From Candidatus Poribacteria bacterium (GTDB taxonomy: Bacteria; Abyssobacteria; SURF-5), in the NCBI GenBank assembly GCA_016215705.1, contig JACRIR010000044.1:1-12497 (forward strand): a stretch of DNA of 12,497 nt, written 5' to 3'. The notes under the pieces were generated by a model that saw only the letters and a list, made by a program, of their open reading frames with translations, was not told the origin of the DNA and did no database searches. Shown in pieces: positions 457 to 12,497 of this stretch (positions within the stretch are counted from its first letter, which is position 1; every line of letters begins with the position of its first letter). The position numbers and the translations under genes were made by a program.

Positions 457-867
457 TCAAACCAGCCCTTTCAGGGCGTACAGGATTGCGTCTCTTACGG
501 ATTGCGCTAAGTCCAGGGCTTCTTCAGCTTGCTCGCGAGTTGGCTCGGGGATGTCGCCCGGATAGCGGATCACAACTCCGTAGGGATTCAGCTTTGTCAC
601 ATCCTTCAAGCCGTCAGCCAACTTCTTGTCTATTCGGCTTATCAGGTCGAGCAACTCACCGAGAATGTGAGTCTTGGGGAATTCAACTTGATGCCTCGAC
701 AGGTAAGCTTTCAAAAACTTCTCAGCAGCCTGCTGTGAGTGAAAGCATGACGGATATAAGGAAGTTCGCTCTTCCGAAAGCAGGGCTTCTGCCGCGTCCA
801 TGTCCGCATCAGCTTTCCGAAGCCACTGTCTGACGATATCTCGTCTAACCTCTTCAGGCGGCCTCAT
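457..867 (-). CDS. HEPN domain protein (partner of MNT nucleotidyltransferase)
   Basis: This 136-residue, mostly helical protein has the HEPN signature (PF05168-like). An N-terminal helix WLRKADADMDAAEALL (15-30) is followed by the core CFHSQQAAEKFLKAYL (41-56), then FPKTHILGELL and a late RYPGD (101-105) before the last helix. HEPN proteins paired with an MNT-fold nucleotidyltransferase form a widespread two-gene module. In the HepT subgroup the HEPN protein is an RNase toxin with an RX4-6HXY motif, which the MNT partner neutralises by AMPylation. I do not see that motif here: the only R...H spacing in the right area is R58 to H67, which is too long. So RNase activity is doubtful, and this may be the other large HEPN group of unknown role. 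The start at 867 overlaps the 3' end of the MNT gene by 14 nt, implying coupled translation. Confidence 0.88.
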   Translation of the reverse strand: MRPPEEVRRDIVRQWLRKADADMDAAEALLSEERTSLYPSCFHSQQAAEKFLKAYLSRHQVEFPKTHILGELLDLISRIDKKLADGLKDVTKLNPYGVVIRYPGDIPEPTREQAEEALDLAQSVRDAILYALKGLV

Positions 868-1174
868 AGATCACTTTCCCGTATTTGTTGGCGGGGTAGG
901 CGATGCCACCTATGACTTCTTTGCTTTCCTCGAACCACTCTGTGGAAATCACAATGACATCGAACGGATACCCAAGCCCTCGGAGCGCATCATGGATTCG
1001 CACGCTCTCTTCAGAATGATCGGCGGGGTTCGGTTCCACAACGAGTAGGTCCACGTCGCTGTCACGGGTCATTGTGTTGGTGGCGGCTGAGCCGAAGAGA
1101 ATTATTTTGTCCGGGGAGGCGATAGAAAGAATTCGCCGGGTGATCTCATGAATCAAAGACTCGTCAATTCCCAT
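854..1174 (-). CDS. MNT-family nucleotidyltransferase (MntA-like antitoxin candidate)
   Basis: This 106-residue protein has a minimal nucleotidyltransferase fold. The diagnostic GSX10DXD motif is complete: G28-S29, ten residues, D40-V-D42. A third acidic residue, D72, lies in the strand FDVIVI, so all three metal-binding acids of the pol-beta superfamily are present and the enzyme is probably active. In characterised MntA-HepT pairs the MNT protein transfers AMP to a tyrosine of the HEPN toxin; whether that applies here depends on the HEPN partner, which lacks the classical RNase motif. It is the first gene of a minus-strand operon and overlaps the HEPN gene by 14 nt. ATG 1174 is the natural start. 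AAGGA lies about 12 nt upstream, a rather long spacing. Confidence 0.9.
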   Translation of the reverse strand: MGIDESLIHEITRRILSIASPDKIILFGSAATNTMTRDSDVDLLVVEPNPADHSEESVRIHDALRGLGYPFDVIVISTEWFEESKEVIGGIAYPANKYGKVIYEAA

Positions 1175-1688: not shown

Positions 1689-1907
1689 ATGAGGACTTTC
1701 ACCGCCTATGTCGAATGGGACCCTGAGACGAAACTGTATGTGGGAATAGTGCCCGGCATCGCCGGCGCGCATACGCAGGGCGCCACACTGGACGAGTTGC
1801 AGAAGAACCTCAAAGAAGTTCTGGAATTGTGTCTCGAGGATTACAGGGAATCTCCCGAAGACCTCCCTGTATTCGTCGGCCTCCAGCAGATTGAGGTCTC
1901 TGCGTGA
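1689..1907 (+). CDS. hicB: HicB-family antitoxin-like protein
   Basis: This 72-residue protein has the partial RNase-H-like fold of HicB. A first strand TFTAYVEWDPETKLYVG is followed by IVPGIAGAHTQGATLDEL, then the amphipathic helix QKNLKEVLELCLEDY, and an end at VFVGLQQIEV. HicB proteins bind and block the HicA mRNA-cleaving toxin. Those with a C-terminal DNA-binding domain also repress their operon, but this short form has none, which is common in the family. The start is firm: AAGGAG (1679-1684) sits 4 nt before ATG, behind a good promoter. Its stop TGA overlaps the GTG start of the hicA remnant. Because that toxin is destroyed, this antitoxin looks orphaned, although its own frame is intact. 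Confidence 0.85.
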   Translation: MRTFTAYVEWDPETKLYVGIVPGIAGAHTQGATLDELQKNLKEVLELCLEDYRESPEDLPVFVGLQQIEVSA

Positions 1908-1989
1908 CTCGGCTCCCCATCACCGTACCCCGCCATTCCGGCAGAGACCTTGCTCGCCCGTTGACTCGCGAAATCATCCGCGAAATAGA

Positions 1990-2174
1990 ACTCAGTCCCC
2001 AATGCTGTTCACGTAAGGGTGACCCGTCCATGTGGTGGCGAACTGGGACATAATTCTGTAGGTGCGAATTTATTCGCACAAAGGGCTTCCGCCTTGTTTT
2101 CGGACAAACCATGCGAATAAATGCGCACCTACAGAATCATGCGTCCGTTAAGTGAACATCATTGACTCAGTCCC
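1990..2174. mobile_element. 165-bp MITE-like element with 17-20 bp terminal inverted repeats and a 10-bp target duplication
   Basis: The element runs 2000-2164. Its left end CAATGCTGTTCACGTAA and right end (2148-2164), read in reverse complement as CAATGATGTTCACTTAA, agree at 15 of 17 positions; extended to 20 bp, 17 match. Both sides carry an identical ACTCAGTCCC (1990-1999 and 2165-2174). It encodes no transposase, so it would need one supplied in trans. A 10-bp duplication is compatible with IS4-related or ISAs1-type transposases, but I cannot assign the family. The inner part holds a second long inverted repeat (separate entry). Excision in silico rejoins the HicA reading frame, which independently supports these boundaries. 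Confidence 0.85.
2053..2137. repeat. Long imperfect inverted repeat nested inside the MITE
   Basis: The arm 2053-2078 (beginning ATTCTGTAGGTGCGAA) and the arm 2112-2137 are reverse complements over 26 nt with one mismatch. They flank a 33-nt GC-richer loop. The arms contain the near-palindrome TGCGAATAAAT(T/G)CGCA. The unit could be a separate REP/MITE-type insertion inside the larger element, or its normal core. Transcribed, it would fold into a very stable hairpin. Confidence 0.8.
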
Positions 2175-2239
2175 GAACAGTTCGTGGAAGAACTGACGAG
2201 GCTATAAGCTACGAGTCAGCTTCCAGGCGCCAGCCAGCC

Positions 2240-5059: not shown

Positions 5060-5102
5060 GAATAGTGCCGGCATCGCCGGAGCCCATACACGGGGCGCCG
5101 CA
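5060..5102 (+). pseudogene. Second, degenerate hicB fragment
   Basis: These 43 nt match the hicB coding segment 1744-1787 (the part encoding GIVPGIAGAHTQGAT) at 38 of 44 aligned positions, with five substitutions and one missing base in the run of Cs, which shifts the frame. Similarity fades on both sides. It is a relic of a related hicB, not an expressed gene. Confidence 0.6.
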
Positions 5103-5832: not shown

Positions 5833-5837
5833 TGAAA

Positions 5838-5922
5838 CCAGCTAGGGGTGTGCTGGGACACTGAGAGTCTTAACGACAACCCTCTGAACCTGACCTGGAT
5901 AATACCAGCGTAGGGAAGCGGA
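5838..5922 (+). ncRNA. TPP riboswitch (THI element)
   Basis: The conserved aptamer blocks are present in order. AGGGGTG (5844-5850) and ACTGAGAG (5860-5867) form the pyrimidine-sensing half. ACCCTCTGAACCTGA (5879-5893) and TGGATAATACCAGCG with TAGGGAA (5896-5917) form the pyrophosphate-sensing half. The short P1 helix pairs GCT (5841-5843) with AGC (5917-5919). It binds thiamin pyrophosphate. With the terminator at 5956-5994 it should switch off transcription of thiS and the following genes when TPP is plentiful. Confidence 0.96.
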
Positions 5923-5955
5923 CAATCAGATTTGCTTTGTGGGACGGACCATCGT

Positions 5956-6106: not shown

Positions 6107-6313
6107 ATGCAAATAAGTCTGAACGGGAAGCCATACGAGAGCGCCGACGGTATGACAGTGGCGCAGTTGCTGAAACATCTGGGAATTGAAGGAAACCGTG
6201 TGGCGGTGGAACTCAATCTCAATATTCTGCCGAAGCAGGAATATGCCACGACCGCGCTCAAAGAAGAAGACCAAGTTGAGGTCGTCCATTTTGTTGGCGG
6301 CGGAACCAAATGA
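6107..6313 (+). CDS. thiS: Thiamin biosynthesis sulfur-carrier protein ThiS
   Basis: ThiS is the small beta-grasp (ubiquitin-like) protein whose C-terminal glycine is adenylated by ThiF, converted to a thiocarboxylate, and used by ThiG as sulfur donor for the thiazole ring. The 68-residue sequence fits: MQISLNGKPYES, TVAQLLKHLGI, then RVAVELNLNILPK and the C-terminal VEVVHFVGGG. It continues two residues beyond the GGG as T-K before the stop, whereas ThiS normally ends in Gly-Gly. So processing or another start of chemistry would be needed (see findings). It is the first gene after the TPP riboswitch. The start ATG 6107 is fixed by homology; the ribosome site is weak (GGTG about 8-11 nt upstream). 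No thiF is present in the window. Confidence 0.93.
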   Translation: MQISLNGKPYESADGMTVAQLLKHLGIEGNRVAVELNLNILPKQEYATTALKEEDQVEVVHFVGGGTK

Positions 6314-6631
6314 GTAGGCGAAAGGTGAAAGGGAAAAGGCGAAACGACGCCACCTGAAGCGCGAGGAGTTCAAAGTCCAAAGTTTGGAGCGAGTCAATTG
6401 TGCATTTGGATTGAGAAGAGGGAAAGAAGTCGGACACCAATGATATGGATTGAACGAATTACGCGAATAAAGGAGAATTTGCAGTCGCAGATGAAAACGA
6501 ATGCCAATCAGTGAAAATCTGCGAAATCTGCGGATCATATGCTTTGGCGTTTCTTTGCGAACTTCGCGCCTTTGCGGTTTGATTAGATGTTATCACTGAG
6601 GTTTGTGCTTCAATGATTGGGAGAGGTGAAT
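6314..6631. other. 318-bp gene-free spacer between thiS and thiG
   Basis: No ORF with protein-like content was found on either strand. The spacer begins with a purine-rich GGCGAAAGGTGAAAGGG stretch (6317-6333). It later holds AATCTGCGAAATCTGCGGAT (6516-6535) and TTTGCG...CTTCGCGCCTTTGCGG (6554-6577), short reiterated motifs of the same style as those before the riboswitch. No terminator or second riboswitch is evident, so thiG may be read through from thiS. Confidence 0.6.
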
Positions 6632-7408
6632 ATGGCTGATGAACTCGTTATTGCGGGCCGGAAATTCCAGTCGCGGCTTCTTATTGGAACCGGCAAGTAT
6701 GCGACATTTGATCTCATGCGACAAGCGCTCGAAGTTTCGGGCGCGGAGATAGTCACGGTCGCCGTGCGGCGAATCAATATCTCGGACAGAAGTAAGGAAT
6801 CGCTTCTCGACTACGTTGACCAGAAGAAATACACGCTTCTCCCAAACACCGCGGGTTGTTACACGGCGGAGGATGCGATACGGACAGCGCGTTTGGGCCG
6901 CGAGGCCGGCCTTTCGGATATGGTCAAGCTGGAAGTCATCGGCGATGAGAAGACTCTCTTTCCCGACAACGCCGGACTCATCGAGGCAGCGAAAGTCCTT
7001 ATCAAAGAGGGATTCATTGTCATGCCGTATACGAACGATGATCCGATCGTGTGCAAGAGACTCGAGGAAATTGGTTGTGCTGTGGTCATGCCGCTCGCCG
7101 CGCCGATAGGCTCGGGATTGGGCATAAGGAATCCCTATAATATACGTATTATCAAAGAGCAGGCCAAAGTGCCGGTCATTGTTGACGCGGGTGTCGGCAC
7201 GGCCTCCGACGCAGCAATCGCAATGGAACTCGGCGTTGACGGCGTTTTGATGAATACCGGCGTCGCAGGCGCAAAGGACCCCGTACTCATGGCCGACGCA
7301 ATGCGCCAGGCGGTCGAGGCCGGACGCAAGGCGTTTCTGGCGGGTCGTATTCCGAAAAAGCTGTACGCGACCGCGAGCAGTCCGCTCGAGGGAACGCTTA
7401 GGGAATGA
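6632..7408 (+). CDS. thiG: Thiazole synthase ThiG
   Basis: ThiG is a TIM-barrel enzyme that builds the thiazole phosphate of thiamin from 1-deoxy-D-xylulose 5-phosphate, dehydroglycine and the ThiS thiocarboxylate. The 258-residue sequence is full length. The Schiff-base lysine lies in [10 protein letters not shown] (K99). Other family blocks are LLIGTGKY (17-24), TVAVRR (42-47), [20 protein letters not shown] (71-90), [17 protein letters not shown] and the phosphate-binding [37 protein letters not shown] start it at ATG 6632, where GAGAGGTGA sits just upstream and [10 protein letters not shown] matches family N-termini. An in-frame TTG at 6617 would add five residues but lies on the ribosome site. 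It follows thiS after an unusually long spacer and precedes thiE by 35 nt. Confidence 0.96.
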
Positions 7409-7443
7409 TGAGTGATGAATGCGGAACTTAGGGACGAACAATA

Positions 7444-8094
7444 ATGGTGGTGGGAACAAGTGGTCGAGTTGATTTCGACCTTTATCTAATCACTGACCGC
7501 CATCAATGCAGCGAACGGGATTTGGCTGCATGCGTCGAGAAGGCGCTGCGCGGTGGAATTCGCGCCGTCCAAATGCGCGAGAAGGACCTCTCGACTCATG
7601 AACGATTCGAGGTCGGAACACGATTGCGCCAAGTGACAAACGGGTTCGGGGCGCGACTGCTCGTAAACGGAGACGCTGCGCTTGCCCTTGCGATCGGCGC
7701 CGACGGCGTTCATTTGCCGCAAGACGGGTTGCCAACGGATGTCTGCCGGAAACTGGTCGGACCGGAGATGCTGATAGGTGTTTCGACGCACACTATGGAG
7801 GAAGCGCGCGAGGCGCAAGAAAAGGGCGCTGATTTCATAACGTACGGTCCGATATACTACACACCCTCGAAAGCGCAGTACGGCGAGCCGAAGGGCATAG
7901 AATCCCTTCGCACGGTCTGCGGAACCATCCGGCTGCCGGTGTTTGCGTTAGGAGGGATGAAGACCGATAACGTGGTCGATGTCCTCTCGGCAGGTGCGGC
8001 TGGAATTGCAATGATATCTGCGATTCTCGGAGAAAACGACATCGAGCAGGCTGCCTCACTACTTGCAGGAAAGTTGCAGGCAAAGAAAGGTTGA
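7444..8094 (+). CDS. thiE: Thiamin phosphate synthase ThiE
   Basis: ThiE condenses HMP pyrophosphate with thiazole phosphate, releasing pyrophosphate, to give thiamin phosphate. The 216-residue TIM barrel has the expected blocks: LYLITDR (13-19), the pyrophosphate-binding VQMREKD (42-48), LLVNGDAALALAIGADGVHL (72-91) with HLPQDG, GVSTHT (112-117), YGPIYYTPSKAQYGEPKG (134-151) and the phosphate-binding FALGGMK (167-173) with GAAGIAMISAI near the end. TenI-type paralogues share the fold but usually lack parts of these sites, so ThiE is the better reading, also from context. The start ATG 7444 has AGGG about 11 nt upstream. Its stop lies 5 nt before the thiC ATG, so the two are translationally linked. 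Confidence 0.93.
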   Translation: MVVGTSGRVDFDLYLITDRHQCSERDLAACVEKALRGGIRAVQMREKDLSTHERFEVGTRLRQVTNGFGARLLVNGDAALALAIGADGVHLPQDGLPTDVCRKLVGPEMLIGVSTHTMEEAREAQEKGADFITYGPIYYTPSKAQYGEPKGIESLRTVCGTIRLPVFALGGMKTDNVVDVLSAGAAGIAMISAILGENDIEQAASLLAGKLQAKKG

Positions 8095-8099
8095 TTCGA

Positions 8100-9383
8100 A
8101 TGACCCAGTTTCTGAAAGCGAGAGAGGGAATTCTCACCCCCGAAATGCAGCATGTAGCCCGGACGGAAAAGCTGGAGCCGGAATACATCAGGCAGGGGAT
8201 TGCGGACGGCAGTGTCATAATCACGCGAAATGACCATCATAGGGGCGCTAATCCGTTGGGAATCGGCGGGCGATTAACGACGAAGGTGAACGCAAACATA
8301 GGCACGTCGGGCGACCACGCTGATATAGCTGAAGAGCTTCAAAAGCTTGAGGTCGCTATTGCGGCGGGCGCGGACACCGTAATGGACTTGAGCGTCGGTG
8401 GCCCGGTGGACAAGACACGCAGAGAGATCATCGCGCACTCGAGCATCCCCGTCGGCACCGTGCCGATCTATCAAGCGGCCCTCTCAGCGCGTCTTCGCGG
8501 GAAATCATTTGTCGAGCTCGATGTGGAAGAGATATTCGATACGATCGAGCAACATGCGAGCGACGGAGTCGATTTCGTGACAGTTCATTGCACCGTCACG
8601 CAGGAAGCCGTCGCGCGTCTGAAGAAACACACGCGCATTCTCGATATCGTCAGTCGCGGCGGCGCGCTTATGTTTGAATGGATGGCATTCAACAAAAAGG
8701 AAAACCCGCTGTACGAACATTTCGACCGCCTGCTCGCCATTGCCGGGAAATGCGACATGTCGCTTAGTCTTGGCGACGGCATGCGACCGGGGTGTCTCTC
8801 GGATGCGACCGACCGTGGGCAAATCCAGGAACTCATTCTCCAGGGCGAACTCGTTGAGCGCTGCCGGGAAGCGGGCGTCCAGGTAATGTGCGAAGGGCCC
8901 GGCCATGTCCCGCTCGACCAGATAGAGGCCAACATGATATTGCAGAAGAGGCTTTGTCGCAGCGCGCCTTTTTACGTCCTTGGGCCGCTGGTGACCGACA
9001 TCGCTCCCGGCTATGACCATATTACGAGCGCGATCGGAGGCGCGATCGCCGCAATGGCCGGCGCCAATTTCCTTTGCTACGTAACGCCGTCGGAGCACCT
9101 GCGGCTTCCCAGTATCGAAGACGTGAAGGAAGGCGTCATCGCGTCGCGCATCGCGGCCCACGCCGCCGACATAGCGCGCGGTCTTCCGGGCGCTATGGAG
9201 CGCGATAACGCCATGGCGCGCTGCCGGAAGAAACTTGACTGGGAAGGTCAGATCGCTCTTGCGATAGACCCGGTCCGCGCGCGCGCGTTGCGCGAGAGTC
9301 GCCATGCCGCTGACACCGATGTCTGCACGATGTGCGGCGAATTTTGCGCAATCAAGATAACCCAAAAAGCTCTTACGATGTGA
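8100..9383 (+). CDS. thiC: Phosphomethylpyrimidine synthase ThiC
   Basis: ThiC is a radical-SAM enzyme that rearranges aminoimidazole ribotide into HMP phosphate, the pyrimidine half of thiamin. At 427 residues it is of the short class, lacking the N-terminal domain of the ~600-residue E. coli type. Visible blocks are NPLGIGGRLTTKVNANIGTS (51-70), TVMDLSVGGP, TVHCTVTQEA, RGGALMFEWM, LSLGDGMRPG, MCEGPGHVPLDQ and VLGPLVTDIAPGYDHIT. The C-terminal cluster-binding cysteines are CTMCGEFC (about 409, 412 and 416), i.e. CX2CX3C, against CX2CX4C in the long E. coli-type enzymes. I use ATG 8100, with AAAGG 9 nt upstream. A TTG at 8091 is in frame but overlaps the thiE stop. It is the last thi gene of the operon. 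Confidence 0.96.
   Translation: MTQFLKAREGILTPEMQHVARTEKLEPEYIRQGIADGSVIITRNDHHRGANPLGIGGRLTTKVNANIGTSGDHADIAEELQKLEVAIAAGADTVMDLSVGGPVDKTRREIIAHSSIPVGTVPIYQAALSARLRGKSFVELDVEEIFDTIEQHASDGVDFVTVHCTVTQEAVARLKKHTRILDIVSRGGALMFEWMAFNKKENPLYEHFDRLLAIAGKCDMSLSLGDGMRPGCLSDATDRGQIQELILQGELVERCREAGVQVMCEGPGHVPLDQIEANMILQKRLCRSAPFYVLGPLVTDIAPGYDHITSAIGGAIAAMAGANFLCYVTPSEHLRLPSIEDVKEGVIASRIAAHAADIARGLPGAMERDNAMARCRKKLDWEGQIALAIDPVRARALRESRHAADTDVCTMCGEFCAIKITQKALTM

Positions 9384-11926: not shown

Positions 11927-12497
<571 letters not shown>

What the first reader, a model, noticed from the sequence alone, without database searches (positions are those of the whole stretch)
1990..2207. Miniature transposable element caught inside hicA, with exact 10-bp target duplication
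Seen directly: ACTCAGTCCC on both sides (1990-1999, 2165-2174), terminal inverted repeats CAATG.TGTTCAC.TAA at 2000 and 2164, and 165 bp of non-coding DNA between. Deleting element plus one repeat fuses ...EIELSP to EQFVEELTRL-stop, a normal HicA end. Boundaries, duplication and reading frame agree independently, which makes this an unusually clean insertion event.
Basis: partly seen in the sequence, partly recalled or inferred. Interest (0 to 1): 0.75.

Follow-up and report, generated by a model that had tools for sequence, protein, structure and literature searches.

The report
IS4-type MITE carrying a REPIN
A 165-base non-coding jumping element with the ends of the IS4 transposon family, itself carrying a second kind of mobile repeat (a REPIN), has landed in an already broken toxin-antitoxin gene; the insertion is ordinary, but the same two-in-one build turns up in other, distant bacteria.

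Summary
Window 2000-2164 is a 165-bp element with 17/20-matching inverted ends and an exact 10-bp target duplication (ACTCAGTCCC). No such structure arose in 200 shuffles. An orthologous hicBA in a genome of the same family has no insert. The ends match the published IS4-subgroup pattern. The same ends close two contigs of this genome directly behind an IS4-family transposase C-terminus, and bound a complete 1,416-bp IS4 element in Neptuniibacter (457-aa transposase, 36% identical to E. coli InsG).

(1) hicA also carries an in-frame 35-codon internal deletion that removes the Gly-Ser-His segment, so the gene is broken independently of the insert. (2) The "non-coding" core is a REPIN: two inverted GTAG-type REPs of a family found at more than 25 other places in this genome.

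Elements with the same ends and 10-13 bp duplications occur in Pseudomonas, Acidobacteria, Deltaproteobacteria, Cyanobacteria and others. 20 of 28 have strongly hairpinned cores (controls 1 of 54). In three other genomes the core is a host-specific repeat, and the composite is multi-copy there, so it moves as a unit. Best reading: an IS4-family MITE carrying a host REPIN, cut-and-pasted in trans. It is a new variant of a known kind.

The parts
2000..2164 (.). 165-bp MITE, IS4-type ends, single full-length copy in this genome
1990..1999 (+). left target-site duplication ACTCAGTCCC
2165..2174 (+). right target-site duplication ACTCAGTCCC
2000..2019 (+). left terminal inverted repeat CAATGCTGTTCACGTAAGGG
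   Evidence: 17/20 complementary to the right end; 1 mismatch to CAATRCTGTTCACTTAAG
2145..2164 (-). right terminal inverted repeat (CAATGATGTTCACTTAACGG on the minus strand)
   Evidence: fits the IS4-subgroup end pattern -AATR--------WTW (PMC2266710)
2049..2141 (.). REPIN: inverted pair of REP sequences with 30-bp arms (2049-2078 / 2112-2141) and a 33-nt spacer
   Evidence: 93% complementary arms; fold z about -5; same REP elsewhere in the genome
2058..2079 (+). REP 1, GTAG-tagged: GTAGGTGCGAATTTATTCGCAC
2112..2132 (-). REP 2, GTAG-tagged, inverted (GTAGGTGCGCATTTATTCGCA)
1904..1999 (+). hicA remnant, 5' part; 35 codons missing in frame after codon 6 (junction at about 1921/1922), including the Gly-Ser-His segment
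   Evidence: alignment with G002 orthologue; Pfam HicA positions 33-57 of 58 only
2175..2207 (+). hicA 3' end (EQFVEELTRL-stop), cut off by the insert
1689..1907 (+). hicB antitoxin gene, intact reading frame, overlaps the hicA start
   Evidence: PF15919 at its cut-off; 89% identical orthologue in G002

Best explanation
The 165-bp sequence is a non-autonomous DNA transposon (MITE) of the IS4 family, IS4 subgroup. Shown: it has IS4-type terminal inverted repeats, an exact 10-bp target duplication and no transposase gene; a transposase C-terminus with the same kind of end lies in the same genome; its core is a REPIN of this genome's own REP family. Inferred: an IS4-family DDE transposase made elsewhere in the genome binds the two ends, excises the whole unit and inserts it by a staggered cut of one helix turn, so the REPIN core travels as passenger. 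Here the unit landed in a hicA whose middle is also deleted, and truncates its reading frame about 17 codons into the element. How the REPIN came to lie between IS4-type ends is not shown. Either RAYT-type transposition put a REPIN into a MITE, or two IS4-type ends came to flank a REPIN.
For: Exact 10-bp duplication and 17/20 ends, none in 200 shuffles. Empty site in the orthologue G002:C18. C118 and C139 of the same genome begin with an identical 58-aa transposase C-terminus whose stop codon lies in the end TTAAGTGAACAGTATTG. That peptide matches annotated IS4-family transposases in Rhizobium (53%, E=2e-4; 2e-6) and E. coli InsG (43% over 30 aa). The Neptuniibacter contig holds a 1,416-bp element with ends CAATGCTGTTCACTTAAG and a 457-aa transposase 36% identical to InsG, E about 1e-79. 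Ends and duplication length fit the published IS4 subgroup (AATR--------WTW, 10-13 bp, 1400-1650 bp; PMC2266710). Twenty-eight distinct 100-320 bp elements with such ends and 9-12 bp duplications, this one included. A 549-bp Pseudomonas element with an 11-bp duplication keeps both transposase termini but lacks the middle (L118), which is the expected deletion intermediate. REP family at more than 25 other places of this genome. In P. fluorescens FW300-N2E3 several 177-200 bp copies with REPIN inside have their own 11-13 bp duplications.
Against: This exact element is single-copy in its genome, so transposition of this unit with its core is inferred from the other genomes. No complete IS4 element could be read in this draft genome; only the last 187 bp at two contig ends are there, and the YREK/DDE part of that transposase is not available. 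The left end deviates from the subgroup pattern at one position (G instead of W at position 14). The C151 element has no target duplication. Three Y1/RAYT-like genes exist in the genome but none was found next to this REP.
Confidence: 0.9

Rival explanations
1. The element is an IS4-type MITE, and the REPIN inserted into it later, by RAYT activity, at this site or elsewhere. The composite never moved as a unit in this genome.
For: The composite is single-copy here. The second MITE with these ends in the genome (C151, 124 bp) has no REPIN. REPs of this family sit at many sites outside MITEs.
Against: In P. fluorescens, Amphritea and an Oscillatoriales genome the composite with the core inside is multi-copy, with separate duplications for several P. 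fluorescens copies. Target duplication, ends and arms here are all little decayed, which suggests no long history at this site.
Confidence: 0.35
2. A REPIN or other RAYT-mobilised element alone inserted in hicA, and the outer repeats are part of it.
For: The inner 93 bp are REPIN-like.
Against: Other REPINs of the genome do not carry the CAATG..TGTTCAC ends. RAYT/IS200-type transposition is not known to make 10-bp duplications (general knowledge). The outer ends recur with unrelated cores and transposase genes.
Confidence: 0.02
3. Chance repeats or an assembly chimera inside a pseudogene, not a transposition.
For: The genome is a draft of 270 contigs with 2.4% estimated contamination.
Against: Zero matches in 200 shuffles; 0.01 TIR matches expected in the window, 2 seen. 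Elements with such ends and duplications recur in other genomes. The downstream hicA sequence continues in register with the orthologue.
Confidence: 0.02

Closest known systems
IS4 family, IS4 subgroup (E. coli IS4/InsG; De Palmenaer et al., PMC2266710)
   Same: Ends of pattern AATR--------WTW; 12-13 of the first 18 bases of the two ends equal to E. coli IS4; duplication of 10 bp (subgroup 10-13; E. coli copy 12).
   Different: 165 bp instead of 1400-1650; no transposase; unrelated core.
REPIN / GTAG-tagged REP with RAYT (PMC3116915, PMC3733652)
   Same: Two inverted GTAG-tagged palindromes around a short spacer, repeated through the genome.
   Different: Here the REPIN sits inside an IS4-type MITE; no cognate RAYT was found next to copies of this REP.
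177-bp REPIN-bearing IS4-type MITE of Pseudomonas fluorescens FW300-N2E3 (seen here; possibly the R6 family of Pf0-1, 177 bp, PMC2718517)
   Same: Same ends, 11-13 bp duplications, host REPIN as core.
   Different: Multi-copy, other REP sequence. The link to R6 rests on equal length only and was not tested.
ISRm22, an IS4-family IS inserted into REPs (PMC1525189)
   Same: IS4 family associated with REP sequences; palindromic target duplications, as for the elements here on average.
   Different: There the IS lies inside a REP; here a REP pair lies inside the element, and its own target ACTCAGTCCC is not palindromic.

Membership tests
MITE of IS4 family, IS4 subgroup | terminal inverted repeats of pattern -AATR--------WTW | tested here: met
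   Right end CAATGATGTTCACTTAA fits at all positions; left end fits except G at position 14
MITE of IS4 family, IS4 subgroup | target duplication of 10-13 bp | tested here: met
   exact 10 bp
MITE of IS4 family, IS4 subgroup | short, no transposase gene | tested here: met
   165 bp; no ORF of 40 aa or more lies inside it
MITE of IS4 family, IS4 subgroup | autonomous partner with the same ends and a YREK/DDE transposase in the same genome | tested here: inconclusive
   Only the 3' end of such an IS (58 aa plus TIR) is present at two contig ends. YREK (YHERWEIELGFRDIK) is present in the complete Neptuniibacter element with these ends
MITE of IS4 family, IS4 subgroup | several copies with the same ends in the genome | tested here: met
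   C98, C151, two IS ends at C118/C139, one decayed end at C56; cores differ
MITE of IS4 family, IS4 subgroup | transposition shown by experiment | not testable with these tools
   -
REPIN (core 2049-2141) | two inverted REPs with GTAG tag, short spacer | tested here: met
REPIN (core 2049-2141) | high copy number in the genome | tested here: met
   48 matches at E<=0.001, more than 25 other places
REPIN (core 2049-2141) | cognate RAYT flanked by the same REP | tested here: inconclusive
   Three Y1-transposase genes in the genome, none with this REP in the fetched flanks, but two of the three lie at contig ends so one flank is missing. The REPIN label therefore rests on anatomy and copy number
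HicA toxin | complete dsRBD-like fold with catalytic His (Gly-Ser-His) | tested here: not met
   35 codons including GSH missing against the G002 orthologue; Pfam HicA matched only at positions 33-57, below cut-off

The most novel reading that the evidence does not exclude
Across bacterial phyla, IS4-subgroup MITEs repeatedly acquire their host's own REP/REPIN palindromes as core, and these composites then multiply by the IS4 transposase. REP sequences would thus have a second, RAYT-independent way of spreading, and the hairpin core may be kept because it helps the MITE (for example by insulating it from transcription, or by bringing the ends together).
Probability: 0.3. Interest if true: 0.6.

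Novelty: new variant of a known kind. Interest (0 to 1): 0.4.

Why it matters
The single insertion is ordinary. What could matter is the recurring architecture. REP/REPIN sequences are usually explained only through RAYT tyrosine transposases. If IS4-type MITEs carry them in unrelated genomes (here, P. fluorescens, Amphritea, an Oscillatoriales cyanobacterium), part of REP dispersal may be due to a DDE transposase with classical target duplications. That is directly testable by counting REPINs bounded by IS4-type ends and by a transposition assay. The TIR consensus CAATRCTGTTCACTTAAG is also a practical handle for finding a widespread, apparently undescribed MITE group: no paper on transposable elements in the open library searched prints it.

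Tried and rejected
- The four PF01609 (DDE_Tnp_1) hits in the own genome (C270, C224, C205, C198) were checked as the partner transposase; no CAATG..TGTTCAC ends were seen in the stretches printed beside those frames, and the TIR search did not hit those contigs.
- The Rhizobium and Neorhizobium IS4 copies gave a right end (CAATACGGTTCACATAACGA in L060) but no left end, so they are not usable as full-length partners.
- Protein scans for the 57-aa C-terminus in genome contigs and viral contigs by degenerate peptides found nothing; a TIR pattern scan then worked.
- The idea that the sequence between TIR and REPIN comes from a second element family (GAGACTGTCCC ends, which flank 11 of 29 REP copies) was tested by alignment. 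The scores did not exceed shuffles, so it was dropped.
- An Rfam match for the element: none at the gathering threshold.
- The element as a transcription terminator: no terminator-like site by the simple scan.
It lacks the catalytic segment, and no further joins were made.

Full report
WHAT IS THERE. The window reads ...GAA ACTCAGTCCC | CAATGCTGTTCACGTAAGGG ... CCGTTAAGTGAACATCATTG | ACTCAGTCCC GAACAG... (the first repeat's A is the last base of GAA). The direct repeat is exact (1990-1999, 2165-2174) and the ends of the 165-bp insert match as inverted repeats at 17 of 20 positions. A scan of the whole window for this kind of structure finds this place only, and none in 200 shuffles. The TIR consensus has two matches in the window, exactly these, with 0.01 expected.

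THE HOST GENE. Upstream lies an intact hicB (1689-1907; PF15919 at its cut-off). In the only near relative with a good match, G002 of the same family, HicB is 89% identical. It is followed by an uninterrupted 77-residue HicA, VTRLPVVDFKTMEKVLLRLGFKSVRQKGSHVFYRHADGRTTTVPHHAGRDLARPLTREILREIDLTPEQFIEELAKL. That is the empty site. The alignment also shows that the window's hicA lacks 35 codons in frame directly after codon 6 (VTRLPI | TVPRHSG...), including the Gly-Ser-His segment. A histidine at this position is essential in HicA proteins (PMC12297915). So the toxin gene here carries two independent lesions, and which came first cannot be read from the sequence. G035 (HicB 71% identical) also has a degraded hicBA, so loss of this toxin is not peculiar to the insertion.

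WHOSE ENDS. In the same genome the end sequence recurs at C151:37103-37226 (a 124-bp element with another core and no duplication), as a decayed single end at C56, and at position 171-187 of contigs C118 and C139. Those two contigs begin with the same 187 bp (99% identical): the last 58 codons of a protein, whose TGA stop lies within the inverted repeat. The peptide matches annotated IS4-family transposases of Rhizobium (53%, E=2e-4), and E. coli InsG weakly (43% over 30 residues). Contigs that stop inside a repeated IS are what a short-read assembly gives for a multi-copy element (inference).

THE FAMILY. One, in Neptuniibacter, is a complete 1,416-bp element with both ends and a 457-aa transposase. 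That protein is 36% identical to InsG over 409 residues (E about 1e-79) and carries Y-2-R-3-E-6-K (YHERWEIELGFRDIK). A Pseudomonas element (L118, 549 bp, 11-bp duplication) keeps both ends of the transposase gene but not its middle, as expected of a step from IS to MITE. The published IS4 subgroup has ends -AATR--------WTW, duplications of 10-13 bp and lengths of 1400-1650 bp (PMC2266710). E. coli IS4 itself starts TAATGCCGATCAGTTAAG and sits in a 12-bp duplication. The window's right end fits this pattern fully; the left end misses it at one position.

THE CORE. Between the ends lies an inverted pair of 30-bp arms (2049-2078 / 2112-2141, 93% complementary). Each arm holds a GTAG-tagged palindrome (GTAGGTGCGAAT..ATTCGCA on the left, one base different on the right). 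This genome holds 48 matches to the element at E<=0.001, at more than 25 other places. Nearly all are this REP, alone or as inverted pairs with spacers of similar length. The core is therefore a REPIN by anatomy and copy number. Three Y1 (RAYT-like) transposase genes exist in the genome, but none has this REP beside it in the fetched flanks, so the mobilising RAYT is not identified.

A RECURRING BUILD. Twenty-eight distinct elements of 100-320 bp with such ends and duplications of 9-12 bp were found in the fetched loci, the window's own included. Their interiors fold far better than shuffles (median z -4.65; 20 of 28 below -3), whereas neighbouring stretches of equal length do not (median -0.35; 1 of 54 below -3; p about 7e-10). 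In three other genomes the core was shown to be a host repeat. In P. fluorescens FW300-N2E3 the core is the REPIN GTGGCGAGGGAGCTTGCTCCCGC..., with 116 matches in the genome, and 177-200 bp composites sit in their own 11-13 bp duplications, two of them exact. In Amphritea there are 84 matches, three of the six best lying in 204-205 bp composites. In an Oscillatoriales genome there are 45 matches, four of the six best lying in 134-158 bp composites. The target duplications are on average palindromic (self-complementarity 0.50 against 0.27 for shuffles), although the window's is not. This sample is biased: it contains mostly elements with at least one exact consensus end, several Pseudomonas genomes, and the hairpin test alone does not prove a REP.

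HOW IT MOST LIKELY WORKS. Inferred from the family: an IS4-type DDE transposase supplied in trans binds both ends, cuts the element out and joins it to a target opened by a stagger of one helix turn, leaving 10 bp duplicated (IS4 cut-and-paste, PMC2266710). The REPIN rides along. In other genomes this is supported by multi-copy composites with separate duplications. In this genome the composite is single-copy, so it remains open whether the REPIN joined a MITE here or in a recent ancestor.

VERDICT. The added value is the IS4 affiliation and the MITE-plus-REPIN architecture, which recurs in unrelated genomes and which no paper found here describes (subscription literature was not searchable). 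R6 of P. fluorescens Pf0-1 (177 bp, PMC2718517) may be such an element, but only its length was compared.

Noticed in passing
window 1904-1999: hicA carries an in-frame 35-codon internal deletion besides the insertion, while hicB keeps an intact frame 89% identical to its orthologue: an orphan antitoxin.
   Followed up: yes
window 5068-5102: 35-nt stretch 86% identical to part of hicB (1753-1787): a second hicB remnant in the same window.
   Followed up: no
own genome C105:3181-3300: A hicB N-terminal fragment (40 aa, 95% identical) lies within a long open frame of 370 codons.
   Followed up: no
window 457-1174, minus strand: HEPN and nucleotidyltransferase (MNT) genes side by side, a typical HEPN/MNT toxin-antitoxin pair, next to the hicB/hicA remnant.
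   Followed up: partly
window 5834-5933 and 6107-9383, plus strand: TPP riboswitch (Rfam, 68 bits) ahead of what look like thiS, thiG, thiE and thiC genes.
   Followed up: partly
window 11927-12497, plus strand: The contig ends within a 16S rRNA gene (Rfam SSU_rRNA_bacteria, positions 1-549), probably an assembly break at a repeated rRNA operon.
   Followed up: no
L003, L005, L006, L007, L017, L019, L023, L024, L028 (own genome): 11 of 29 REP flanks contain GAGACTGTCCC-like sequence: REPINs of this genome may also sit inside a second TIR element family with ends GAGACTGTCCCRTAATT.
   Followed up: partly
L071 (G035:C74): Another degraded hicBA: a stop codon in hicB and a deletion in the middle of hicA, independent of any MITE.
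   Followed up: partly
L190 1232-1692: Pseudomonas sp. Leaf48: two 198-bp elements with these ends side by side inside one exact 13-bp duplication, a possible composite or tandem unit.
   Followed up: no
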